IMG/VR virus record: IMGVR_UViG_3300042154_003418
Span: 1 to 40,217 of that record
DNA length: 40,217 nt
From: a virus
Direction: 5' to 3' (one strand)
The notes below the pieces were generated by a model. It saw nothing but the letters and a program-made list of their open reading frames with translations, was not told where the DNA came from and searched no databases. Of this stretch, positions 12,193 through 20,873 are shown piece by piece; position 1 is the stretch's first letter; every line of letters starts with the position of its first letter. A program made the position numbers and the translations under genes.

Positions 12193-12229
12193 TTGACAAC
12201 AAAGGTTCTGCACTGGTATAATTTGGCGC
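12193..12229 (+). promoter_or_regulatory. Consensus promoter with TTGGCGC start element (cassette promoter 1)
   Basis: TTGACA (12193-12198), 18-bp spacer, TATAAT (12217-12222) immediately followed by TTGGCGC (12223-12229). Seven more promoters of this design follow, all rightward. Confidence 0.85.
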
Positions 12230-12317: not shown

Positions 12318-12501
12318 GAACAATCACGAGTGCACTCGCTGTTAGTTTTTAGTCTCACACGACGACTTACTGGGGGTACCACCCACGCTAACTGCATCGA
12401 CCCTAAACTGGAGCACGGTCGCAGGGCATTAGGTTATTGCCTGTGTAGCTCTAGCAGGGGAGAAAGTATTGGTTCGGCTCTTCAGCCCACCACACGGTTT
12501 A

Positions 12502-12732
12502 CGACACTGGGCTTTGTCGACTGCTATAGATTAACGACTGTTGCAGTTCGGGGTCGGGTGCTACGGTTCCAGCGCATGCACCACTTTTAGCGACTCGGGG
12601 TCGGGTGCTCCAGTCGAAGCTTTTGCACCACTTTTAACGACTTAGGGTCGAGTGCTCAGTTTGCGATAAGCACCACTCAGGGGCCATTTAACGACAATCC
12701 GTGTCGGGCCACATTAACGAGGGCCAAGCTCG
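12502..12732. repeat. Array of six related stem-loops (CGAC ... GTCG)
   Basis: Units begin with a form of TTAACGAC and close with GTCG(G): stems at 12502/12516, 12535/12553, 12591/12600, 12638/12647, 12692/12703 and 12718/12729. Loop lengths are 10, 14, 5, 5, 7 and 7. The last unit has CGAG/CTCG, a compensatory change on both sides. Units two to four are each followed by a second hairpin GGTGC...GCACC (AGTGC in the fourth) and the words ACTTTTARCGACT. Confidence 0.75.
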
Positions 12733-13245
12733 GGTACGTAAGTGCACCAGGCTGCCAAGACCATTTTACGTCGGTACCAGATAAGACGGCAGTTTATATA
12801 GTAACTGCTCACTAGGCTTACTCATTTCCAGCTAATCACTTTCAGTGGTGGGTCCATCCGGTTTTCGCTTTCGCTACTAGGCTTCAAGAGTCAGTCACAT
12901 CCCGGTTTCGCTGGGTTTTCATCCTGACCCTAAGGTACGGCAAGCGGTGATGTGGGAAAATCACGCACACTTGCTGTGAGGCCTTAAGGTTTCGCACAAC
13001 TTGCATGTGCTCATCAGAGGGTTGGTATCGCATACGGGTAACGATCCCGTCTAGGTACCTTGAAAGGGTACTGACCTCACCTGAAGTCGAATGCGATATG
13101 TTAAATTAGCCACGCAGGTATTTTACTACTTACCATACGGAACATCGTCCAGATATTACGGGCTAAAAAGGTTGGGCTGCGACTAGAGTTTGTTCGGTCG
13201 CAATCAAGTTGTTATCCCAGCATCGAGTGCTGAGCCTCATAACAC

Positions 13246-13440
13246 CCATAAGTTAATCGGCCAACGTAATGGTCCACACTCAAATCGTAGATATAGGATG
13301 CGTAAGCTAAGTTTTCTGGCTTAAAGGTTGCTGCCTTTCCATACTTCGCCGCTTACTCCAACAGAGCCTATCGCCGTAACAATTATAGTTGCGCTACTAG
13401 ATTACTGCCACCAGCAAGTAGCTGGCCGATTAACTTATGG
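13246..13440. repeat. Domain closed by an 18-bp inverted repeat (A)
   Basis: CCATAAGTTAATCGGCCA at 13246-13263 is perfectly complementary to 13423-13440. Inside are nested stems (ATAGG/CCTAT, GTAAGC/GCTTAC, AAAGG/CCTTT with loop TTGCTG, CCAGC/GCTGG). CATAACACCCATAA opens this domain and is repeated exactly at the opening of the next one. Confidence 0.82.
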
Positions 13441-13451
13441 ATTCATAACAC

Positions 13452-13594
13452 CCATAATAAAGTACCCAGCAAATTCTTGCAGAGTTGCAGCATTCTACCA
13501 CTTTCGCCGTCTCGGCCGAGACCTACCGGTGGGGTTAATCTGCATACATCTAACAAGCAAACCAGGCTAGCACTGTCTGGGTACTTTATTATGG
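13452..13594. repeat. Domain closed by an 18-bp inverted repeat (B)
   Basis: CCATAATAAAGTACCCAG at 13452-13469 is perfectly complementary to 13577-13594. The interior holds the palindrome GTCTCGGCCGAGAC (13509-13522) stacked on CCAC/GTGG, with an internal loop that is purine-rich on the minus strand. Confidence 0.82.
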
Positions 13595-13682
13595 ACACTA
13601 AGGGCTGTGGCTCGGTTCCCGAAGGTATTCCCCACAATTAAGACGCTGCTTGACGCGACCGCTGTCACCCAATCTATACTAT

Positions 13683-13712
13683 ATTATAACATACAACAGT
13701 TAACATAATCAA
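13683..13712 (-). promoter_or_regulatory. Leftward promoter at the right end of the structured region
   Basis: TTGATT (13712-13707), 18-bp spacer, TATAAT (13688-13683) on the minus strand. Start expected near 13676, at the edge of the first hairpins. An imperfect repeat CAACAGTTAACA / TGTTAACTGCTGTTG flanks it upstream. Confidence 0.6.
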
Positions 13713-14014: not shown

Positions 14015-14323
14015 TTAAGCAAGTTCTGCAACCAGACGCTCAAGCACTTCGTGGTTGGCCTTTTCCAGGCTTTCAAACACTTCTGGAGCAACGCCGCAGG
14101 CAAGTGCCAGCTTGTCCACCAGTTCGGCTTTACGCACACGGTGTTGGCCGGTGGCCTTGGTTTTGGCCACGTACACGCCTTCGCGGCTGAGTTTGGCCAC
14201 TACACTGCGTACGGTTTTGCCCAGGGTCTCGGCCAGTTGTTCCACGGTCTTGCCCGACTGGTAGCCTGTGACGAGTTCCACGGTTTGCTCGGGAGTGTAG
14301 TTTTGAGGGGTTGCTTTAGTCAT
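14015..14323 (-). CDS. Small HTH protein, paralogue 2 of 4
   Basis: A 102-aa protein: N-terminal helix-turn-helix (YTPEQTVELVTGYQSGKTVEQLAETL, then GKTVRSVVAKLSREGVYVAK), a basic linker (KATGQHRVRKAEL), and a C-terminal helical segment VFESLEKANHEVLERL. Two tandem ATG codons exist; the second is better spaced (six bases) from AAAGGA. The upstream promoter is TTGATG-N17-TATAAT. The C-terminal helix may mediate dimerisation (inference). It is the most GC-rich of the four copies by eye. Confidence 0.82.
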   Translation of the reverse strand: MTKATPQNYTPEQTVELVTGYQSGKTVEQLAETLGKTVRSVVAKLSREGVYVAKTKATGQHRVRKAELVDKLALACGVAPEVFESLEKANHEVLERLVAELA

Positions 14324-14363
14324 CATATGTCCTTTGGTTGGTTTCTGCGCTGTTGAAGATTCT

Positions 14364-14392
14364 ATTATACGTGAATCAGAAGGGAACATCAA
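14364..14392 (-). promoter_or_regulatory. Promoter of HTH paralogue 2
   Basis: TTGATG (14392-14387), 17-bp spacer, TATAAT (14369-14364). The first bases of the transcript (AGAATCTTCAACA) are identical to those of HTH paralogue 3, so the leaders were duplicated together with the genes. Confidence 0.7.
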
Positions 14393-14507
14393 GATCAAAA
14401 TTTTCGTCTTGAGTGGTAGTATCACAAAACATTTCCGATAGTTCCGCATCCACAAATTCATCGAATGCCGCATACTGATACGCTGTGAAAAATTCGTTTG
14501 TTGCCAT
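14376..14507 (-). CDS. Small acidic hypothetical protein (43 aa)
   Basis: A 43-aa, strongly acidic protein (MATNEFFTAYQYAAFDEFVD...). It has a promoter (TTGCAG-N17-TATAAT) and AGGAG about eleven bases before the ATG, which is good evidence of expression for its size. Its 3' end overlaps the promoter of HTH paralogue 2. No family recognised; such short acidic proteins can be DNA mimics or inhibitors, which is speculation. Confidence 0.62.
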   Translation of the reverse strand: MATNEFFTAYQYAAFDEFVDAELSEMFCDTTTQDENFDLDVPF

Positions 14508-14534
14508 CTGCCGTTATCTCCTGTTGATGTAATA

Positions 14535-14563
14535 ATTATACAAAACTTGGACACTTGCTGCAA
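14535..14563 (-). promoter_or_regulatory. Promoter of the 43-aa acidic protein
   Basis: TTGCAG (14563-14558), 17-bp spacer, TATAAT (14540-14535), leftward. It lies back to back with the rightward cassette promoter at 14580. Confidence 0.65.
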
Positions 14564-14579
14564 TATCAAAAATTTCGTC

Positions 14580-14616
14580 TTGACACTGTAAAGCTTTTGC
14601 ACTTATAATTTGGCGC
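14580..14616 (+). promoter_or_regulatory. Cassette promoter 2 (TATAAT-TTGGCGC)
   Basis: TTGACA (14580-14585), 18-bp spacer, TATAAT (14604-14609), TTGGCGC (14610-14616). Two decayed copies follow within 100 bp: TTTTGCACTTGAC...GCACTGGCGCA near 14632 and 14670, in which the -10 box is deleted but CTGGCGCA remains. Confidence 0.75.
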
Positions 14617-14720
14617 AGCAAACCCTCAAGTTTTTGCACTTGACCGCGCACTGGCGCAAGGCCCAAGGTTTTGCACTTGACAAGGTTTCGCACTGGCGCA
14701 GCACGGTTACCGTGCTGGTT

Positions 14721-14820
14721 AAATTGTGACCCAGCAGTCACAAACTAGACCGATCAGTCGCAATCTATACCGATCAGTCGGTGACCAGACTGTTCAGTCG
14801 GCATCTATACTGTGCAGTCA
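14721..14820. repeat. Five tandem 20-bp iterons
   Basis: Five units with an exact 20-bp period. CAGTC is invariant at unit positions 15-19; three units carry GATCAGTCG or GTTCAGTCG, and AGAC/ATAC alternates before it. Two helical turns per unit would put bound proteins on one face. The array ends 17 bp before a TATAAT (14838-14843) that has no recognisable -35 box. Confidence 0.82.
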
Positions 14821-14837
14821 CAAAATGCCTGGTACAG

Positions 14838-14843
14838 TATAAT
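14838..14843 (+). promoter_or_regulatory. -10 box downstream of iterons, no -35
   Basis: TATAAT preceded at the -35 distance by the last iteron, not by a TTGACA-like hexamer. This looks like an activator-dependent promoter. GGCGC recurs about 20 bases downstream. Confidence 0.45.
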
Positions 14844-14900
14844 TATGACCGGGCGGTTTCGGCGCAAGAATCGTGCCAGGTGGCACAAAAACAACACCCA

Positions 14901-15000
14901 ATTGTAACAGTTTGTAACAGTCGTTGACACGGGCCGCAAAATTGTGGTATAATTTTGGCGCAGTTTTGCAAACAAAAGTATTCATTTTTGTTTGCAAACA
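14901..15000 (+). promoter_or_regulatory. Promoter-stem-loop cassette A
   Basis: In order: two direct copies of TTGTAACAG 10 bp apart (14902-14920), TTGACA (14924-14929), 18-bp spacer, TATAAT (14948-14953), TTGGCGC (14955-14961), then a stem TTTGCAAACAAAA / TTTTGTTTGCAAA with loop GTATTCAT-like. No gene on this strand follows; the transcript would run toward the 3' end of the leftward gene at 15051. Apart from this cassette, the iterons and promoter 2, the gap 14617-15050 holds no gene. Confidence 0.8.
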
Positions 15001-15026
15001 AAAGTACTCATTTGTGGACAAAATAA

Positions 15027-15046
15027 AACCCGCATAATAGCGGGTT
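15027..15046 (-). terminator. Terminator of the leftward 15051-15435 genes
   Basis: AACCCGC / GCGGGTT with six-base loop; leftward it is followed by TTTATTTTG. Rightward the tract is only TTATTATT, so it may also slow transcripts from cassette A. Confidence 0.72.
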
Positions 15047-15050
15047 ATTA

Positions 15051-15296
15051 TTAAATAAATGCGGATCTGGGGATTTTAACCAATTGATTGAGATAATCAA
15101 TCTCCCATTCATAATGGGCGAATGTCTCATAATCATAATCACCAGTCATTGCCAGCAAATAATCGGCGGCAATATTAATATAGTTTGGCCGAATTTTGGA
15201 GAATGGCAAACCATTATAATCGCTTGGATTAATATCTAATTGGCAAAATGTGAGAATCACGGGTTTATCGGCAAAACTTGGCAAATTGAAAAGCAT
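15051..15296 (-). CDS. Hypothetical protein (81 aa)
   Basis: An 81-aa protein (MLFNLPSFADKPVIL...) with several Tyr and Asp near its C-terminal third (AMTGDYDYETFAHYEWEIDYL). The ATG is preceded by GAGGA and follows the stop of the upstream 45-aa gene by one base, which excludes longer starts. Function unknown. Confidence 0.65.
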   Translation of the reverse strand: MLFNLPSFADKPVILTFCQLDINPSDYNGLPFSKIRPNYINIAADYLLAMTGDYDYETFAHYEWEIDYLNQLVKIPRSAFI

Positions 15297-15297
15297 T

Positions 15298-15435
15298 TTA
15301 TTGTTCCTCAGAAAAGTAAACCACACGGTTAACGGCCGGCACATTATCATAATCCTGATTTTCTAAACCAGCTTCTTCTAATGTGAGAAAATCGGTTAAA
15401 TCTTCCCATTGCATTTGGTCAACCAAATCAAACAT
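15298..15435 (-). CDS. Small acidic hypothetical protein (45 aa)
   Basis: A 45-aa acidic protein (MFDLVDQMQWEDLTDFLTLEE...) with AAGGAA ahead of the ATG. It is the upstream partner of the 81-aa gene. No domain recognised. Confidence 0.6.
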   Translation of the reverse strand: MFDLVDQMQWEDLTDFLTLEEAGLENQDYDNVPAVNRVVYFSEEQ

Positions 15436-15455
15436 TATATTCCTTTTGAAAAAAT

Positions 15456-15500
15456 CCTATTATATGGGATAATCCCATATAATAGGGCTTTCGCCCTATT
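15456..15500 (-). terminator. Two overlapping hairpins, terminator of HTH paralogue 3
   Basis: Leftward RNA meets first AATAGGGC-GAAA-GCCCTATT (15500-15481), then a 14-bp stem CCTATTATATGGGA / TCCCATATAATAGG (15486-15456) followed by TTTTTT. The hairpins share six bases and cannot both form fully. The second is a strong terminator; the arms also contain TATAAT that may serve as the -10 of the 15435 gene. Confidence 0.7.
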
Positions 15501-15502
15501 AA

Positions 15503-15835
15503 TCAAATTGGCTTAGAATTAGCCAATGCTGAAAAAATCTTTTCCAACGCCGTTTTATTGGCTTTTGTAAGAGATTCGATCTCATTTTCAGTCAATTTGA
15601 GAATCGCGCCGATTGCATCAGCGTGAGCATCTTTTTTGACTACTGGAGCACCAGTTTTGGAAACGTAGGTTTTAGCCACGTAAACTTTTTCGCGTGACAG
15701 TTTAGCCACAACTGAACGAACGGTTTTGCCCATGCTTTCAGCAATTGATTCCACTGTGACACCAGCCGCATAATCGGCCACCATTTTAGCGGTTTGCTCT
15801 GCGGTATAGTTGACCGCCTTAGTTGCTTTTTCCAT
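15503..15835 (-). CDS. Small HTH protein, paralogue 3 of 4
   Basis: A 110-aa protein very close to paralogue 4: YTAEQTAKMVADYAAGVTVESIAESM, GKTVRSVVAKLSREKVYVAK, TYVSKTGAPVVKKD, and the end IESLTKANKTALEKI. The central block GKTVRSVVAKLSRE, the likely recognition helix region, is shared by paralogues 2, 3 and 4. AAAGGAAA precedes the ATG. It has its own promoter and terminator. Confidence 0.83.
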   Translation of the reverse strand: MEKATKAVNYTAEQTAKMVADYAAGVTVESIAESMGKTVRSVVAKLSREKVYVAKTYVSKTGAPVVKKDAHADAIGAILKLTENEIESLTKANKTALEKIFSALANSKPI

Positions 15836-15864
15836 TTTGATTTCCTTTCAGTGTTGAAGATTCT

Positions 15865-15892
15865 ATTATATCAGGTTTTTGGCTTTTTGCAA
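15865..15892 (-). promoter_or_regulatory. Promoter of HTH paralogue 3
   Basis: TTGCAA (15892-15887), 16-bp spacer, TATAAT (15870-15865). The region to its right, 15893-16020, holds another leftward TATAAT (15965-15960) and a CCAAAT/ATTTGG hairpin but no gene. Confidence 0.62.
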
Positions 15893-16024
15893 GAAAAAAG
15901 AAAATTTATTTTTCTTTTCTTGATCTGCTACCAAATCCGATCATTTGGTGGCATGAGTCTATTATACTGGGTTTTTGCCTAAAAAGTCAGGTGTGCGAAA
16001 ATACAACATAGGTGGAAACCCCTA

Positions 16025-16127
16025 TTGACAACCTGAAAAATCCGTGGTATAATTTGGCGCCAACTATATAAGCATTTGCTTATATAAGCAAACACGCATG
16101 AATTTTTGGCGCCCACACCCAATTATA
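16025..16127 (+). promoter_or_regulatory. Promoter-palindrome cassette B, with an opposing copy
   Basis: TTGACA (16025-16030), 17-bp spacer, TATAAT (16048-16053), the palindrome TTGGCGCCAA (16054-16063), then TATATAAGCA-TT-TGCTTATATA (16065-16086). Downstream lies GGCGCC again and a leftward TATAAT (16127-16122), so two -10/GGCGCC elements face each other across the palindrome. No gene between 15836 and 16303. Confidence 0.72.
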
Positions 16128-16183
16128 CCACGAAAATCCGTTGTTTTTTAATCCCCTACAAAAAATAAGTTATACGAAAAAAC

Positions 16184-16275
16184 TTGACACGGGCCAAAAT
16201 CATATGCTATAATTTTGGCGCAGTTTTGAAAACAAAAGTATTCATTTTTCAAAATGCAAACTTTTGTTTTCAAAA
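16184..16275 (+). promoter_or_regulatory. Promoter-stem-loop cassette C
   Basis: TTGACA (16184-16189), 18-bp spacer, TATAAT (16208-16213), TTGGCGC (16215-16221), then a 15-bp perfect stem TTTTGAAAACAAAAG / CTTTTGTTTTCAAAA. Compared with cassette A the stem has compensated C-to-A / G-to-T changes. A terminator follows directly, so the product would be an RNA of about 90 nt. Confidence 0.8.
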
Positions 16276-16279
16276 TGGC

Positions 16280-16312
16280 AAAAGCCCCACCTGGGGGCTT
16301 TTATTATCTTTT
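16280..16312. terminator. Bidirectional terminator
   Basis: AAAGCCCC / GGGGCTTT with a short loop. Rightward it is followed by TTTTATTATCTTTTT, leftward by TTTTGCC. It serves the cassette C transcript and the leftward PQ-loop gene. Confidence 0.75.
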
Positions 16313-16555
16313 TGGTTTAATCTTATAATATAAGATAATCCCAATAAATACGATGTTGGCGGTATAGTTGAATATCAGGGGCCAATGCCATTTAGGGATA
16401 ATATAAATAATAGTGAATATCTCACCAACGCCCCACATAATCAAAAAACTCCAAGTTAATCCGTCCGAGTTTTTGGTTTTATAAGATTCTATTGCTTGTG
16501 GTAATCCACAAAATGCCAATAATATAGAACCAATCCAGCCAATATATTCCATCAT
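16304..16555 (-). CDS. PQ-loop membrane protein, SemiSWEET-like
   Basis: An 83-aa protein with three predicted membrane helices and the PQ-loop signature GLPQAIESYKTKNSDGLTW (Pro19-Gln20) in helix one. SemiSWEETs are three-helix half-transporters that dimerise to move sugars; the length matches a single unit. Helix three starts FNYTANIVF, and an Asn in this region lines the pore in the family. GGAGA precedes two tandem ATGs. A transporter-like gene is unusual in a phage; the substrate cannot be inferred. Confidence 0.78.
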   Translation of the reverse strand: MMEYIGWIGSILLAFCGLPQAIESYKTKNSDGLTWSFLIMWGVGEIFTIIYIIPKWHWPLIFNYTANIVFIGIILYYKIKPKR

Positions 16556-16668
16556 TTGATTATCTCCGTGATAGTTTGAATTTGAAAAGGGTTAGTATCA
16601 TATCTAGAATCTAACCGTTTATCTTCTGAAAAGTGCAAAACCAGTGCAATAATCCAAAGTATTTTCAT
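16552..16668 (-). CDS. Possible small peptide upstream of the PQ-loop gene
   Basis: A 38-aa frame (MKILWIIALVLHFSEDKRLD...) whose stop overlaps the PQ-loop start as ATGA. The first 12 residues are hydrophobic. There is no clear ribosome binding site, so it may be a leader peptide or not translated at all. Confidence 0.4.
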   Translation of the reverse strand: MKILWIIALVLHFSEDKRLDSRYDTNPFQIQTITEIIK

Positions 16669-16674
16669 TTGGTT

Positions 16675-16703
16675 AATAATCGGGGTTATTAGCCCCGATT
16701 ATT
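16675..16703. terminator. Hairpin between exonuclease and PQ-loop genes
   Basis: 11-bp stem AATAATCGGGG / CCCCGATTATT with seven-base loop. The T-rich tract is on the rightward side (TTATTATTTATTTTG), although the genes run leftward. Confidence 0.6.
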
Positions 16704-16705
16704 AT

Positions 16706-17404
16706 TTATTTTGCAACAAACCAGTTTTTAGTTTGAAAATCGCGCCAATTATAAGGCTTGATATTATCTTTCCAATTGCGTTTTTTGAGTATGGCTTTCA
16801 AAATCGGCAATTCAAAATCACGGGCATCTTCTAATGCGGTATGCGGTTCTTTTACAAACTCGCCATTAATAAAACCGCATACAATCTCCGCATTAGTTTG
16901 GAAAGTCATATTACCCTGAACAGTGGGTTTATTAAATGCGTGATTATCAAGGGCAAATTGGCGATAATCTTTTTTATTGCAAATATTACCAACTGAAGCA
17001 GACCACAAACAAAACTCTTGAGTAAAACCCGATAAATCAATTCCAGTATTAAGGCATTTTGATTTATCAAAAGCCAGATTATAGGCAGTCAATTGGGGAT
17101 TATATTTGCCAATGGCTTGGTTAATCCATTTATTAATGGCATTAACTGAAGCCACCATTCTAGTGCCATTATCTAACATAATAGCATAATTGGATTTACG
17201 TTTTTCCAAACCAGAATAACCCCAAATATCATTGGCCGCTTTATCATGAAACAATTCATGAGTGCCATAATGACCGGCAACTAATACCGCACATTGATTA
17301 TAAATTTTGCCTTCGCGGTCAACGATAATAATCGCAAAATCTGCGACTGTATCGGCCATTGTGGTTTCTGTATCGAGAATCGCAAAATACTGTTTTTTAG
17401 CCAT
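16706..17404 (-). CDS. DEDDh 3'-5' exonuclease (DnaQ-like)
   Basis: A 232-aa protein with the three exonuclease blocks of the RNase T/DnaQ fold: ExoI FAILDTETT (Asp11, Glu13), ExoII with LTAYNLAFDKS, and ExoIII PHTALEDARDFELPIL, in which the His and Asp fit the DEDDh type. It would remove nucleotides from DNA or RNA 3' ends; a proofreading or RNA-turnover role is possible. The start MAKKQYF is preferred over a Met 19 codons upstream because it fits the domain edge. A TATAAT is visible at 17474-17469. Confidence 0.85.
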   Translation of the reverse strand: MAKKQYFAILDTETTMADTVADFAIIIVDREGKIYNQCAVLVAGHYGTHELFHDKAANDIWGYSGLEKRKSNYAIMLDNGTRMVASVNAINKWINQAIGKYNPQLTAYNLAFDKSKCLNTGIDLSGFTQEFCLWSASVGNICNKKDYRQFALDNHAFNKPTVQGNMTFQTNAEIVCGFINGEFVKEPHTALEDARDFELPILKAILKKRNWKDNIKPYNWRDFQTKNWFVAK

Positions 17405-17514
17405 TTGGTTTCCAATTACCGGATACTGCCGGAATTCGCAGATTGTAGCGTTTTGCTGCAATAGAGTTATTATACCCGATATTTTAGGAAATCGGGCAAA
17501 ACCTGCAAATTATT

Positions 17515-17730
17515 TTAAAAAAAGTTGTTGTAAATTCCCAACAAGTTTGCCAAGAAAAATGTACCATTTAGTACACCAAGCGAACGATCACGGCGAACAA
17601 AAGCCACAATCAACCACGACAAAGAACCAAAAGTAAACAAAACGTACCCCAATTTAAACATTGCGCTTGCAACTGCAAACGAACCCAAAATTGAAACCAA
17701 AGTACCAAACCAACTGAGAATATTAAGCAT
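17515..17730 (-). CDS. Small three-helix membrane protein
   Basis: A 71-aa protein with about three hydrophobic segments (LSWFGTLVSILGSFAVASAM, YVLFTFGSLSWLIVAFV, GTFFLANLLGIYNNF). The pattern resembles half-size PnuC/YgjV-like membrane proteins, which share the SWEET-type fold, but this is tentative. Its ATG lies inside the end of the SprT-like gene (AAAAATGCTTAA, eight-base overlap). Confidence 0.68.
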   Translation of the reverse strand: MLNILSWFGTLVSILGSFAVASAMFKLGYVLFTFGSLSWLIVAFVRRDRSLGVLNGTFFLANLLGIYNNFF

Positions 17731-18106
17731 TTTTTGTAATCGCCATTTTGTGAAAAGGATTTGCAGGTAAACCATATTCTAACATGATTTTTTGCCAATT
17801 TTCGCCATGCCCGCAAATTTTTTCGGATTCGCCAAAAAGATTATAATCGGCTTGATGGATAATTTCATGCGGAAGTATTACATCAATCATTGTATTGAAG
17901 TATTCTGGTTTAGCTTTGAAAAATTTGTAACCCAAATGTATGCGGTTTTCAGTTTGAAAACATTTGCCAGCGCAACGCCAAATGTAAGGGTTAAGTTCTA
18001 TCTTAGGCTCATTGTAGTGAACCAGTGGAGTATAAATTTCGCAAAGTGTATCCCAAATCATTACAGTCTCACGCTGTATGAGGGTTAAGAGTGATTTTTT
18101 GTCCAT
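17723..18106 (-). CDS. SprT-like zinc metalloprotease
   Basis: A 127-aa protein with the zinc motif HEIIH (residues 80-84) and a third ligand region GHGENW (His100) at SprT-like spacing. An upstream ICEIYTP-like helix and the IHLGYKFF strand fit the SprT-domain layout. SprT/Spartan proteins act on DNA-bound proteins in eukaryotes; the role of phage members is not known. Longer starts are excluded because TATAAT ends six bases before this ATG, making a leaderless message likely. Confidence 0.8.
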   Translation of the reverse strand: MDKKSLLTLIQRETVMIWDTLCEIYTPLVHYNEPKIELNPYIWRCAGKCFQTENRIHLGYKFFKAKPEYFNTMIDVILPHEIIHQADYNLFGESEKICGHGENWQKIMLEYGLPANPFHKMAITKNA

Positions 18107-18112
18107 GCTGAA

Positions 18113-18118
18113 ATTATA
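18113..18118 (-). promoter_or_regulatory. -10 box of the SprT-like gene (leaderless)
   Basis: TATAAT on the minus strand, six bases before the ATG; the -35 region is poor. Paired TGTAACAG sites at 18162-18187 lie about 45 bases upstream, between this promoter and the rightward cassette D. Confidence 0.6.
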
Positions 18119-18161
18119 CCCCAATAAAACCCGATTTTTTCGCAGATCACATAAAAAGAAG

Positions 18162-18288
18162 TGTAACAGTTGGCCCACGCTGTTACAATTATTTATGTTG
18201 TTTTTTTGCAAAACCCCTTGACAGGGGCTAAAATTATGTGGTATAATTTTGGCGCAAACTGCAAACCAAAGTATTCATTTTGGTTTGC
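18162..18288 (+). promoter_or_regulatory. Promoter-stem-loop cassette D
   Basis: Inverted TGTAACAG / CTGTTACA (18162-18169, 18180-18187), TTGACA (18218-18223), 18-bp spacer, TATAAT (18242-18247), TTGGCGC (18249-18255), stem GCAAACCAAA / TTTGGTTTGC (18261-18288). The stem differs from A by a compensated A-to-C / T-to-G pair. The cassette ends in GTGTTA, whose TTA is the stop codon of the leftward 18300 gene. Confidence 0.8.
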
Positions 18289-18299
18289 AAACAAAAGTG

Positions 18300-18452
18300 T
18301 TACCTGTCAAAAATGAAATTTTTATATTCTCGCAGATTATCACGATAATTAAAAGTCATAATCATAAGAACCGGCAACATTAATGTAATCAATATTTTAT
18401 CCGGGCGATTATAAACAAAGTGTTTGATTAATCTTGCAAATGCTTTAATCAT
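18300..18452 (-). CDS. Small membrane protein (50 aa)
   Basis: A 50-aa protein with a basic start (MIKAFARLIKHFVYNRPDK) and one hydrophobic helix (ILITLMLPVLMIMTF). AAGGA precedes the ATG, which follows the upstream gene by one base. Function unknown. Confidence 0.65.
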   Translation of the reverse strand: MIKAFARLIKHFVYNRPDKILITLMLPVLMIMTFNYRDNLREYKNFIFDR

Positions 18453-18453
18453 T

Positions 18454-18609
18454 TTATTTTCCTTGTTTATATTTTCTACGATGTTGTTCAATATCTATGG
18501 TAACCCATTCAAATGCTTGTTTAATACCTATATAAATATATCCAAGTAACAGAACCGGAATTAAAAGATATTCAAGATAATATGAAGCAATAAACCAGAA
18601 TTTTTTCAT
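18454..18609 (-). CDS. Small membrane protein (51 aa)
   Basis: A 51-aa protein: hydrophobic residues 4-30 (FWFIASYYLEYLLIPVLLLG) and a basic tail (HRRKYKQGK). GGAGA is well placed before the ATG. It is followed at one base by another small membrane protein, so the two may form a pair. Confidence 0.65.
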   Translation of the reverse strand: MKKFWFIASYYLEYLLIPVLLLGYIYIGIKQAFEWVTIDIEQHRRKYKQGK

Positions 18610-18644
18610 TATATTCTCCAAATAATCCCCTAGGGGATTATATT

Positions 18645-19121
18645 TTAGTGACCTTGTTTGCTTGGAACATAAACCCCGCGAATATTAAAGCGATCACAAA
18701 CCGCTTTTAAATAAGTGGTATTATCCTCATAAAATGTAAATTCAGCATCACGGAAATTCTTTAAATTAAAGAATTTAGCCAAACCCGCAATTTTGAGTTT
18801 ACCGCCTGAAGTAGTATCACCATCACAACGACTGATAATATAATCAGGCTCACCCAAAACAGTTTTAATAAACTCATTATCAGCATCACGCAAAACTCGC
18901 GCAGTGGCAATAATCACAAAAGTATTATCGTCTTGCAAATCTTTACGATATTGGGATGCTAATGGCAATAATGAATCATCCATTGCACGATATTCATTCT
19001 GTCTCCAATAATCCAAATCAATACGTTCGCCATTATCGTCAACGATTGTACGATATCTGTGCAAACTGCAAACAATAGTACCATCCATATCGTAAATCGA
19101 AACCTTTGTGATCTTAGCCAT
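18645..19121 (-). CDS. HAD-family phosphatase
   Basis: A 158-aa haloacid-dehalogenase-like hydrolase. Motif I is YDMDGTI (nucleophile Asp11, acid Asp13), motif II IIATAR, a motif III lysine in GGKLKIAGL and motif IV FYEDN. There is no large cap insert. The layout resembles the 3'-phosphatase half of polynucleotide kinases and small phage HAD proteins, so a nucleic-acid or nucleotide phosphatase role is plausible. AAGGA precedes the ATG. The hairpin AATCCCC/GGGGATT lies just after the stop. Confidence 0.82.
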   Translation of the reverse strand: MAKITKVSIYDMDGTIVCSLHRYRTIVDDNGERIDLDYWRQNEYRAMDDSLLPLASQYRKDLQDDNTFVIIATARVLRDADNEFIKTVLGEPDYIISRCDGDTTSGGKLKIAGLAKFFNLKNFRDAEFTFYEDNTTYLKAVCDRFNIRGVYVPSKQGH

Positions 19122-19151
19122 TTTGCATCCTTGTGCGTTGTTGATGTAGTA

Positions 19152-19179
19152 ATTATATCACGGGTTTAGGGATTGTCTA
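19152..19179 (-). promoter_or_regulatory. Promoter of the HAD gene
   Basis: TAGACA (19179-19174), 16-bp spacer, TATAAT (19157-19152), leftward, then a leader of about 30 bases with a ribosome binding site. Confidence 0.6.
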
Positions 19180-19209
19180 GGCTTTTTTTGTTGTTGAGAC
19201 AAAATAAAG

Positions 19210-19343
19210 TGTAACAATTGGCGGCGACTGTTACAATTGTTTTTTGCACAAACGGGCTTTTGTATGGTATAATTATGTGGTGGTAATGTGTGCCAAAAAT
19301 TTGGCGCCAACTTGCAAACAAAAGTATTCATTTTTGTTTGCAA
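19210..19343 (+). promoter_or_regulatory. Promoter-stem-loop cassette E
   Basis: TGTAACA / TGTTACA (19210-19216, 19229-19235), TTGCAC (19244-19249), 18-bp spacer, TATAAT (19268-19273), then after a 27-bp insertion the palindrome TTGGCGCCAA (19301-19310) and stem TTGCAAACAAAA / TTTTGTTTGCAA. It ends in GCGTTA, where TTA is the stop codon of the leftward 19353 gene. No gene lies in 19122-19352. Confidence 0.75.
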
Positions 19344-19352
19344 ACCAAAGCG

Positions 19353-19523
19353 TTACAATTTACCTTCCATTATCAATTGACGTTCCGCATACAAAAGTAT
19401 TCGTTTTTTATCCGCCTCACCTTCGCAATTTGGATATTCTAATTCTTTTTCAAGTTTATTAAAATATTCCACCAATTCACACATTTTGCGAGTTAACTCA
19501 TATTGTGGTTTGATAGTAATCAT
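19353..19523 (-). CDS. Small helical hypothetical protein (56 aa)
   Basis: A 56-aa, highly charged helical protein (MITIKPQYELTRKMCELVEYF...). It contains one ATACTTTTGTATGCGG stretch resembling the cassette loop sequence. It starts two bases after the upstream gene and ends exactly at cassette E. No family recognised. Confidence 0.6.
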   Translation of the reverse strand: MITIKPQYELTRKMCELVEYFNKLEKELEYPNCEGEADKKRILLYAERQLIMEGKL

Positions 19524-19525
19524 TT

Positions 19526-19657
19526 TCAGCATCCTGTCATCATTGCAAAATAATCTTCAAATTCTTGATCTGTCCAAACCCAACTAGGGCAGGTATTCAT
19601 AAGCATATCATAATATATGCCGGACAAATTGTGGACAATGTAGGTGTTTGTGTTCAT
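19526..19657 (-). CDS. Small hypothetical protein, leaderless (43 aa)
   Basis: A 43-aa acidic protein (MNTNTYIVHNLSGIYYDML...). The ATG follows TATAAT by six bases, as in the SprT-like and MazG-like genes. No domain recognised. Coupled to the 56-aa gene downstream. Confidence 0.55.
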   Translation of the reverse strand: MNTNTYIVHNLSGIYYDMLMNTCPSWVWTDQEFEDYFAMMTGC

Positions 19658-19663
19658 AGGTGT

Positions 19664-19669
19664 ATTATA
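19664..19669 (-). promoter_or_regulatory. -10 box of the leaderless 43-aa gene
   Basis: TATAAT on the minus strand with six bases to the ATG; no good -35 box at 16-18 bp. Confidence 0.5.
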
Positions 19670-19739
19670 GCAAAGAATCAAGCCTTTGACGATTGTATTT
19701 ATTAATCAGCCCGATTTAAAAAATCAATCATGTAAGCGT

Positions 19740-19863
19740 TGACACGGGCACAAATTGTGTGGTATAATTTGGCGCCCATATATAAGCATATGCTTATATA
19801 TGGATACGCTGATATATGGGCTGGGCGCAGTTGCAAACCAAAGTATTATATTTGGTTTGCAAA
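19740..19863 (+). promoter_or_regulatory. Promoter-palindrome-stem-loop cassette F
   Basis: TTGACA (19740-19745), 18-bp spacer, TATAAT (19764-19769), TTGGCGCC (19770-19777), a perfect 26-bp palindrome (19778-19803, centre GCATATGC), a second GGCGC (about 19825), and stem TTGCAAACCAAA / TTTGGTTTGCAA (19832-19863). GCCCATATAT near 19776 can alternatively pair with ATATATGGGC ending at 19822. It ends in GTGTTA, the TTA being the stop codon of the 19872 gene. Confidence 0.8.
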
Positions 19864-19871
19864 CAAAAGTG

Positions 19872-20192
19872 TTAATTAAACATCATATCGCGCACAGCTT
19901 CTGCAACTTCTTCATTGCAGCGACATTGTACAGGCACAGCCCAAAATGCTCCACAATTCAAACGCTCAAGTGCAATATACTCGCCCATTTTGCGCTTGAA
20001 TTCATCATCTTTAAAATCACATTGTGCGATTGCAACGTGGACAAACTCACTGCACAAATTGCCAGGCATTGCAGGCACAACCACCACGGTCAAGCCTTCT
20101 GCGGCAAAGCTAAAGATTTCACCGCCAGCACCCTCAACATTTTCTTTGAGTGCTTTACGGTATGCCTTTTGTTCACGGTTCAATTTAGTCAT
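19872..20192 (-). CDS. Hypothetical protein (106 aa)
   Basis: A 106-aa protein with a basic start (MTKLNREQKAYRKALKEN) and a central hydrophobic strand (EGLTVVVVPAMPG), then FVHVAIAQCDFKDDEFKRKMGEYIALERL. It contains cysteines C47, C58, C80, C89 and C91, the last two as CRC. No domain recognised. GGAG and a TATAAT (20222-20217) are placed upstream. Confidence 0.7.
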   Translation of the reverse strand: MTKLNREQKAYRKALKENVEGAGGEIFSFAAEGLTVVVVPAMPGNLCSEFVHVAIAQCDFKDDEFKRKMGEYIALERLNCGAFWAVPVQCRCNEEVAEAVRDMMFN

Positions 20193-20262
20193 GTTACATT
20201 CTCCAGTTAAAAAACAATTATATCACAATGGTGGATTGTAGGGGCAAAGCCCCTACAGTTTA

Positions 20263-20586
20263 TCAGGTCTTTTCAGCCTTGATGAAATCCGCAATGGCTT
20301 TCAATGCTGTTTTGTTGGCTTTTGTCAGCGATTCAACATCAGCTTCATTCAAGCCCAATGCATCACCAATGTAATCGGCAACAGCATCCTTTTTGATTAC
20401 AGCCTCACCAGTTTTGGATACATAAGTCTTAGCCACATAAACTTTCTCACGCGAAAGCTTGGCAACCACAGAACGCACAGTTTTGCCCAATGCTTCAGCA
20501 ATGGTTTCCACAGTTTTACCGGCTTGATAGTCGGCAACCATTTGCAGGGTTTGCTCAGGGGTATAGTTCACAGTTTTAGCAGTCAT
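20263..20586 (-). CDS. Small HTH protein, paralogue 4 of 4
   Basis: A 107-aa close relative of paralogue 3: YTPEQTLQMVADYQAGKTVETIAEAL, GKTVRSVVAKLSREKVYVAK, TYVSKTGEAVIKKDAVADYI, ending DVESLTKANKTALKAI. AAAGGAAA precedes the ATG; a GATATACT -10 box sits near 20625. The near identity with paralogue 3 in the middle, against divergent ends, points to recent duplication or recombination. Confidence 0.83.
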   Translation of the reverse strand: MTAKTVNYTPEQTLQMVADYQAGKTVETIAEALGKTVRSVVAKLSREKVYVAKTYVSKTGEAVIKKDAVADYIGDALGLNEADVESLTKANKTALKAIADFIKAEKT

Positions 20587-20599
20587 TTCAATTTTCCTT

Positions 20600-20686
20600 T
20601 CAGGGTTTCATTACAAAAGCAAAGTATATCACAAAAGGCAGGGCAATGCAAGCCATTGCCAACACCATGTCAAAAAATTCACGCAT
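20600..20686 (-). CDS. Possible 28-aa membrane peptide
   Basis: MREFFDMVLAMACIALPFVI and eight more residues form a single hydrophobic helix. The ATG lies eight bases inside the end of the upstream gene (AAAAATGCGTGA), with GAGG before it. The same overlap design is used at 1806 and 17730, which supports it despite its size. Confidence 0.45.
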   Translation of the reverse strand: MREFFDMVLAMACIALPFVIYFAFVMKP

Positions 20687-20873
20687 TTTTAGCCTCACAT
20701 TCGGCCGCATAAGCCAACATATTTTGTGCATCACACAGTGCATTATATGCTTTGCGAACCAAAGTATCCTTATCGATACCTTCGCTATTTTGAGCACGAT
20801 AGTATGCAACCAATTTTTCAGCATATGCAAGAGCAAGTGTTTGTGTTTGTGTCATAGTGTCTTTCGTTGTCAT
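20679..20873 (-). CDS. Small Ala-rich helical protein (64 aa)
   Basis: A 64-aa helical protein (MTTKDTMTQTQTLALAYAEKL...) rich in Ala. The first ATG is six bases after TATAAT and would be leaderless; a second ATG six codons on has weak GAAAG ahead of it. Function unknown. Confidence 0.62.
   Translation of the reverse strand: MTTKDTMTQTQTLALAYAEKLVAYYRAQNSEGIDKDTLVRKAYNALCDAQNMLAYAAECEAKNA

What the first reader, a model, noticed from the sequence alone, without database searches (positions are those of the whole stretch)
14580..19863. A family of eight rightward promoters with TTGGCGC start elements and covarying stem-loops facing the leftward genes
Promoters at 12193, 14580, 14924, 16025, 16184, 18218, 19244 and 19740 share TTGAC(A), spacers of 18 bp (once 17) and TATAAT. 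In seven of the eight TTGGCGC or TTGGCGCC follows within two bases; in 19244 it comes after 27 bp. In five (A, C, D, E, F) a stem with a GTATTCAT-like loop follows. The stems vary with compensation (ACAAAA/TTTTGT against ACCAAA/TTTGGT; TGCAAA/TTTGCA against TGAAAA/TTTTCA). None has a gene on its own strand; D, E and F end exactly at the stop codon of an oncoming gene. Known precedent: promoter-early stem-loop (PeSL) cassettes that shuffle genes in T4-type phages. Here the orientation is reversed, so they may make antisense or small RNAs, or mark recombination junctions.
Basis: partly seen in the sequence, partly recalled or inferred. Interest (0 to 1): 0.85.

Follow-up and report, generated by a model that had tools for sequence, protein, structure and literature searches.

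The report
Palindromic promoter cassettes facing phage genes
An uncultured relative of phage T5, and hundreds of its cousins, carry strong promoters at the ends of genes pointing the wrong way, each built into one self-complementary sequence and followed by a second, which most likely separate neighbouring transcription units; no sequenced named phage was found to carry the element.

Summary
Seven of the eight promoters have perfect TTGACA / 17-18 bp / TATAAT followed directly by TTGGCGC. They are the only seven in the 104-kb record and all point right. The eighth (19244) has no TTGAC box. Three copies end exactly on the stop codon of the oncoming gene. The phage is a distant T5-like virus. 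At least 290 distinct copies sit in related uncultured phages, and none was found in 50,697 named phage records. All 23 changes in its right arm, including -10 boxes TAAAAT and TACAAT, are matched in the left arm. The stem-loop after TTGGCGC is almost purely Watson-Crick, differs between lineages and is similar within a genome. Units are rearranged between relatives, but breakpoints are no more common in cassettes than in other intergenic gaps, so a PeSL-like shuffling role is not specifically supported. Best reading: a boundary element between leftward operons, made of a strong rightward promoter back-to-back with the next leftward promoter plus two palindromes, emitting a short hairpin or antisense RNA. 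Transcription and mechanism are inferred.

The parts
14924..14961 (+). Rightward promoter TTGACA-18-TATAAT with TTGGCGC; inverted repeat CAAAATT (14937-14943) / AATTTTG (14951-14957), loop of 7
14966..14997 (+). Start-site stem-loop (SL1) of the 14924 cassette
   Evidence: fold
16025..16060 (+). Rightward promoter, 17-bp spacer, TTGGCGCC; no clear inverted repeat over the -10; stem-loop at 16065-16086
16109..16151 (-). Leftward extended -10 promoter with GGCGCC downstream, facing the 16025 promoter; its TATAAT is about 60 bp from the -35 of the 16184 promoter
16184..16221 (+). Rightward promoter; inverted repeat GCCAAAATCATA (16193-16204) / TATAATTTTGGC (16208-16219), loop TGC, one C.A mismatch
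16220..16302 (+). Long stem-loop SL1 (16223-16277) followed by a terminator-like hairpin (16280-16302) before the oncoming PQ-loop gene
18218..18255 (+). Rightward promoter; inverted repeat over spacer and -10 (18228-18238 / 18242-18252)
18260..18302 (+). SL1 (18260-18289) and trailing repeat AAACAAAAGTG ending on the stop codon (TTA, 18300-18302) of the oncoming gene
19268..19308 (+). Degenerate cassette: extended -10 TATGGTATAAT at 19263-19273, no TTGAC box, palindrome GCCAAAAATTTGGC and TTGGCGCC (19301-19308)
19312..19355 (+). SL1 (19312-19343) and repeat ending on the stop codon (19353-19355) of the oncoming gene
19739..19775 (+). Rightward promoter; weak inverted repeat CAAATT / AATTTG with a long loop
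19772..19874 (+). Two stem-loops (19772-19828 and about 19831-19862) and repeat ending on the stop codon (19872-19874) of the oncoming gene
12193..12229 (+). Class-1 promoter with TTGGCGC but no inverted repeat; faces no gene
14580..14616 (+). Class-1 promoter with TTGGCGC but no inverted repeat; followed by remnants TTGAC...GCACTGGCGCA at 14640-14700
16304..16555 (-). Oncoming leftward gene (PQ-loop family)
   Evidence: Pfam PF04193 4.6e-12
18645..19121 (-). Leftward gene, polynucleotide-kinase-like family; own promoter at 19179-19152
   Evidence: phrog_415 2.7e-10

Best explanation
Each cassette is a boundary element between two leftward operons of an uncultured T5-like phage. SHOWN (by sequence): a near-perfect sigma70 promoter (A-rich upstream region, TTGACA, 18-bp spacer, TGN, TATAAT, GC-rich discriminator TTGGCGC) points rightward into the 3' end of a leftward operon, and in many copies lies back-to-back with the leftward promoter of the next operon. 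Its spacer and -10 form one covarying palindrome; a second, nearly strictly Watson-Crick palindrome starts within a few bases of the expected start site. INFERRED: host RNA polymerase loads on the rightward promoter, and this bound or slowly escaping polymerase, together with the hairpins that leftward RNA forms in the two palindromes, stops leftward transcription at the end of each operon. This keeps read-through out of the next leftward promoter, which is often for a leaderless gene. The rightward product is a short 5'-hairpin RNA, or an antisense RNA where no terminator follows. The conserved TTGGCGC discriminator probably puts these promoters in their own regulatory class, as discriminators separate early from late T5 promoters.
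For: Orientation and place: the right-hand neighbour is a leftward gene in 217 of 267 copies, its stop codon a median 88 bp away; in the window the cassette repeat ends on the stop codon three times. Back-to-back partner: leftward TATAAT is concentrated from about 60 bp upstream of TTGACA, peak 60-69 bp, 43 hits in that 10-bp bin, against 12 for rightward TATAAT. Both-strand palindromes: 163 distinct SL1 stems hold 2008 Watson-Crick pairs, 10 G.T and 7 A.C, as expected of elements that act in both RNAs or in duplex DNA. Terminator-like hairpins accompany cassettes in both directions more often than other gaps (rightward 27% vs 13%, p=0.002; leftward 31% vs 21%, p=0.048), and leaderless leftward starts are twice as common beside them (31% vs 16%, p=0.0014). 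Other promoters of the record mostly have 17-bp spacers and AT-rich discriminators; no other promoter in it has TATAAT followed so closely by TTGGCGC. In T5 all gene classes use sigma70 promoters that differ mainly in the discriminator (PMC7472727).
Against: No transcript data. Most SL1 stems lack a U-tract, and strict intrinsic terminators were found in only 46 (rightward) and 64 (leftward) of 290 copies. About two thirds of long gaps between leftward genes have no pattern-matching cassette, so boundaries can be made without it. The model does not by itself explain why the promoter box is part of a palindrome. In the window only three of the eight copies have a good palindrome over the -10. 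Some 'leaderless' and strand calls rest on simple ORF picking.
Confidence: 0.4

Rival explanations
1. The cassettes are genes for small or antisense RNAs: the rightward promoter makes a stable RNA with a 5' hairpin that regulates the oncoming leftward gene or acts in trans.
For: Strong promoter with an rrn-like GC-rich discriminator and no coding gene on its strand; stem-loop at the start of the RNA; rightward terminators within 105 nt in 46 of 290 copies, 0 in shuffles; SL1 is more alike within a genome than between genomes (12.97 vs 8.87, control region 6.55 vs 6.54).
Against: No conserved RNA sequence beyond the hairpin; SL1 sequence differs completely between lineages; strict Watson-Crick pairing with no G.U excess is unlike an RNA selected on one strand only; this does not explain the palindrome upstream of the start.
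Confidence: 0.25
2. The palindrome is a DNA structural switch: under negative supercoiling the spacer and -10 extrude as a cruciform or form a single-strand hairpin, shutting or tuning the rightward promoter; SL1 acts likewise.
For: 124 of 145 distinct copies have at least 8 of 9 pairs vs 0.27 by chance; 23 of 23 right-arm departures are compensated, including in the -10 itself; two registers (loop 3, n=87; loop 5, n=32) argue against a dimeric protein with fixed spacing; divergent promoter pairs concentrate negative supercoils between them (general knowledge).
Against: No physical data; quasi-palindrome correction during replication could also produce compensated changes; some copies, including 12193, 14580 and 16025, lack it; no relative-by-relative test of supercoiling response is possible here.
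Confidence: 0.18
3. PeSL-like recombination cassettes: short homologous regulatory repeats that let gene units be swapped between phages.
For: Units between cassettes change order and content among 56 relatives; cassettes are homogenised inside a genome; the repeat ends exactly on stop codons.
Against: Alignment breakpoints are enriched 1.8-fold in cassettes but 2.1-fold in other intergenic gaps; adjacency loss across cassettes is not clearly above other long gaps; promoter faces the genes.
Confidence: 0.1
4. The inverted repeat is an operator for a phage DNA-binding protein, for example one of the D5-like proteins encoded beside the cassettes.
For: Three D5-like paralogues lie in the cassette region (phrog_323, E 2.7e-7 to 5e-6); GGCGC recurs without a -10 in class-1 repeats.
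Against: Covarying half-sites and two spacings are not expected of a sequence-specific dimer.
Confidence: 0.07

Closest known systems
PeSL cassettes of T4-like phages (Arbiol 2010; Comeau 2014, seen only as cited in PMC4503421)
   Same: Promoter plus stem-loop repeated between small accessory genes that are shuffled among relatives
   Different: Here the promoter points against the genes, its -10 is inside a covarying palindrome, the phage is T5-like, and breakpoints do not favour cassettes over other gaps
Bidirectional sigma70 promoters with symmetric -10 elements (Warman et al. 2026, PMC12825309)
   Same: Symmetry around TATAAT; the leftward strand also reads TATAAT in the 3-nt-loop register
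   Different: Symmetry extends beyond TATAAT to arms of 9-12 bp, covaries, and holds in a 5-nt-loop register where the leftward TATAAT is lost; TGN extension and TTGACA exist only for rightward
Bidirectional intrinsic terminators between convergent transcription units
   Same: Perfect palindromes, WC only, between oncoming transcripts; some copies have U-tracts both ways
   Different: Most SL1 lack U-tracts, and one side of the convergence is a bare promoter, not a gene
rRNA-type promoters (rrnB P1: A-rich UP element, TATAAT-GCGCC discriminator; from own knowledge)
   Same: A-rich upstream region and GC-rich discriminator
   Different: TTGGCGC offset by a few bases, 18-bp spacer, perfect -35, palindrome
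T5 sigma70 promoters (PMC7472727)
   Same: Related phage type using strong sigma70 promoters distinguished by the discriminator
   Different: T5 early promoters have ATATT there, not TTGGCGC; no such cassette was found in named phages

Membership tests
PeSL cassette | Early promoter plus stem-loop as a repeated intergenic unit | tested here: met
   (that the promoter is early was not tested)
PeSL cassette | Promoter directs the downstream gene; stem-loop terminates the upstream gene on the same strand | tested here: not met
   Cassette promoter faces the 3' end of an opposite-strand gene
PeSL cassette | Recombination junctions lie in the cassettes | tested here: inconclusive
   1.8-fold enrichment vs 2.1-fold in other gaps; adjacency 0.31 vs 0.36
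Bidirectional promoter | Shared symmetric -10 driving both directions | tested here: not met
   Second register destroys the leftward TATAAT while keeping arm pairing; activity not testable
Intrinsic terminator | GC-rich hairpin followed by U-tract | tested here: inconclusive
   46 rightward and 64 leftward of 290 by strict rule
Small or antisense RNA gene | Own promoter, discrete transcript, terminator | tested here: inconclusive
   Promoter sequence yes; terminator in a minority; transcript not testable
Known Rfam RNA family | Covariance-model match | tested here: not met
   0 matches at gathering scores in the window
T5-like phages (Demerecviridae) | Related terminase, D5-like proteins | tested here: met
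   Terminase 48-50% to Vibrio Demerecviridae; D5-like; a distant relative, not a named genus

The most novel reading that the evidence does not exclude
A new class of phage promoter whose -10 box is one arm of a conserved, covarying palindrome, so that promoter function is coupled to DNA or RNA hairpin formation (a structure-gated promoter), used as a repeated counter-oriented boundary between operons.
Probability: 0.2. Interest if true: 0.82.

Novelty: new variant of a known kind. Interest (0 to 1): 0.6.

Why it matters
Hundreds of related but uncultured phages keep near-perfect promoters pointing against their genes, and keep the -10 box self-complementary to the spacer even when the box itself changes. 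That is hard to explain with any ordinary promoter, operator or terminator and gives a clear prediction: break and restore the pairing and measure transcription. It would show either a structure-gated promoter or an operon-insulating module, and in either case a compact genetic part. It also bears on how T5-like phages, which rely wholly on host sigma70 polymerase, sort their genes.

Tried and rejected
Named-phage homology of the region: none; cassette consensus in named phages: no match over 80%. Strict consensus in bacterial and archaeal species genomes: 0, so not a host element at that stringency. Rfam: 0. Recombination junction: tested two ways, not specific. Leftward promoter as the cause of the palindrome: rejected, because the 5-nt-loop register loses the leftward TATAAT but keeps pairing. 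Sequence-specific dimer site: unlikely for the same reason and because 23 of 23 changes are compensated. One-strand RNA structure by wobble asymmetry: in SL1 G.T and A.C are about equal (10 vs 7); in the -10 palindrome G.T exceeds A.C (38 vs 1) but almost only at the stem ends, so undecided. Cassettes replacing terminators: not supported, terminators are commoner with cassettes. Literature: T5 discriminator classes found; PeSL papers themselves not held; no T5 antisense transcriptome found.
Full report
WHAT IS THERE. The window is the first 40,217 bases of a 104,217-base virus record. The pattern TTGACA-N16..19-TATAAT-N0..3-TTGGCGC occurs in it exactly seven times, at 12193, 14580, 14924, 16025, 16184, 18218 and 19739, all on the + strand, with no match on the - strand and none with the reversed control. 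Shuffles give 1.2 (max 4) matches to TTGAC-N19-TATAAT with one mismatch, against 9 found. From 14,015 to 20,873 the genes run leftward, so the promoters face them. After SL1 a repeat AAACAAAAGTG runs exactly to the stop codon of the oncoming gene at 18300 and 19872; a variant repeat (AAACCAAAGCG) does so at 19353.

TWO CLASSES. 12193 and 14580 have a spacer ending in GCACTGG or GCACT and no inverted repeat; 14580 is followed by remnants of the same sequence without the -10 (TTGAC...GCACTGGCGCA). The others belong to the palindromic class, though 16025 has no clear palindrome over its -10 and 19739 a weak one.

WHO CARRIES IT. No region similarity and no cassette was found in 50,697 named phage records, and no strict consensus in 84,980 species genomes. 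The nearest named terminases are those of Vibrio Demerecviridae, T5-like phages, at 48-50% identity, and three D5-like proteins (D5 is a T5 regulator) are encoded among the cassettes. Seven related records each hold 3-7 copies, all on one strand within a single cluster.

THE MISSED FEATURE. The spacer and -10 form an inverted repeat, typically GCCAAAATTATA-TGN-TATAATTTTGGC. Of 145 distinct 38-mers, 124 have at least 8 of 9 Watson-Crick pairs; 200 rounds of shuffled spacers give a mean of 0.27 and a maximum of 3. The left arm occurs in two main registers, loop 3 (87) and loop 5 (32). Wherever the right arm departs from its consensus (TATAATATT, TAAAATTTT, TACAATTTT), the left arm carries the complement: 23 of 23. 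Sliding the arms lowers pairing from 0.95 to 0.30-0.56; dealing the columns anew lowers it to 0.91 and 0.94 in the two registers, below the observed value in all 500 trials. Because changes inside TATAAT itself are compensated and the spacing may change by two, neither a second promoter nor a dimer site with fixed spacing explains it well. Related sequences are not independent, but compensated changes occur in both registers and several flanking contexts.

THE SECOND PALINDROME. Stems of at least 9 follow TTGGCGC in about 185 of 290 copies, against 1 in shuffled sequence. Among 163 distinct stems there are 2008 Watson-Crick pairs, 10 G.T and 7 A.C. The lack of wobble bias suggests function in both transcripts or in duplex DNA. 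Its sequence is lineage-specific and more alike within a genome than expected (12.97 vs 8.87; control region 6.55 vs 6.54), which points to concerted evolution.

SURROUNDINGS. The right neighbour is a leftward gene in 217 of 267 copies, its stop codon a median 88 bp away. Leftward TATAAT boxes pile up from 60 bp upstream of TTGACA (43 in the 60-69 bin; rightward control 12), so in many copies the cassette promoter and the leftward promoter of the next gene are back-to-back. Many of these leftward promoters have TATAAT 5-8 bases before ATG, that is leaderless starts, in 31% of cassette gaps against 16% of others (p=0.0014). Terminator-like hairpins are commoner with cassettes in both directions, yet strict ones exist in only 46 and 64 of 290. 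Other promoters of the record mostly have 17-bp spacers and AT-rich discriminators; TTGGCGC directly after TATAAT on the + strand is confined to these seven.

RECOMBINATION TEST. The order of gene families between cassettes differs among 56 relatives. Breakpoints of pairwise alignments are 1.8-fold enriched in cassettes but 2.1-fold in other intergenic gaps. Gene adjacency is conserved at 0.31 across cassettes, 0.36 across other long gaps and 0.55 across short gaps. Cassettes are therefore not special junctions on this evidence.

HOW IT MOST LIKELY WORKS. Shown by sequence: promoter, two palindromes, orientation, back-to-back promoter pair. Inferred: loading of host sigma70 polymerase on the rightward promoter plus hairpins in leftward RNA ends each leftward operon and shields the next, often leaderless, one; a short hairpin or antisense RNA results. 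T5 offers a precedent for regulation through the discriminator, since its early and late sigma70 promoters differ mainly there (PMC7472727). A structure-gated promoter is the most novel reading not excluded, and it explains the palindrome better than the boundary model alone does.

LIMITS. No transcript data, host unknown, fragmentary records, simple ORF calls, and only three good copies of the -10 palindrome in the window itself; the strength lies in the relatives.

Noticed in passing
L031, L036, L045, L047, L119, L157 and others; 25-60 nt after TTGGCGC: Perfect parS sites (TGTTTCACGTGAAACA, or the Pseudomonas-like TGTTCCACGTGGAACC) sit at a fixed place in cassettes of many relatives, up to four per phage (32 of 45 distinct copies within 60 nt; 48 stretches), while no ParB domain was found in nine of the records. 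A possible capture of, or roadblock by, host ParB.
   Followed up: partly
window 14015-14323, 15503-15835, 20263-20586 (-): Three paralogues with similarity to the T5 D5-like transcriptional regulator, in a cluster of small leftward genes; the family is the commonest in the cluster of relatives.
   Followed up: partly
window 18118 (-) and relatives: Many leftward genes appear leaderless, TATAAT 5-8 bases before ATG.
   Followed up: partly
window 12500-13700: A 1.2-kb stretch without convincing genes with a 47-nt tandem duplication at 12548-12641 and one tRNA-Glu on the - strand (13023-13097).
   Followed up: no
window 14580-14700: Repeats TTGAC...GCACTGGCGCA look like remnants of class-1 promoters that lost the -10; similar arrays exist in relatives (L017, L018, L042).
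   Followed up: no
window 16025-16151: Two promoters with similar -10 regions face each other (CCGTGGTATAATTTGGCGCC rightward, TTCGTGGTATAATTGGGTGTGGGCGCC leftward), with hairpins between; similar pairs occur in L054 and L047.
   Followed up: no
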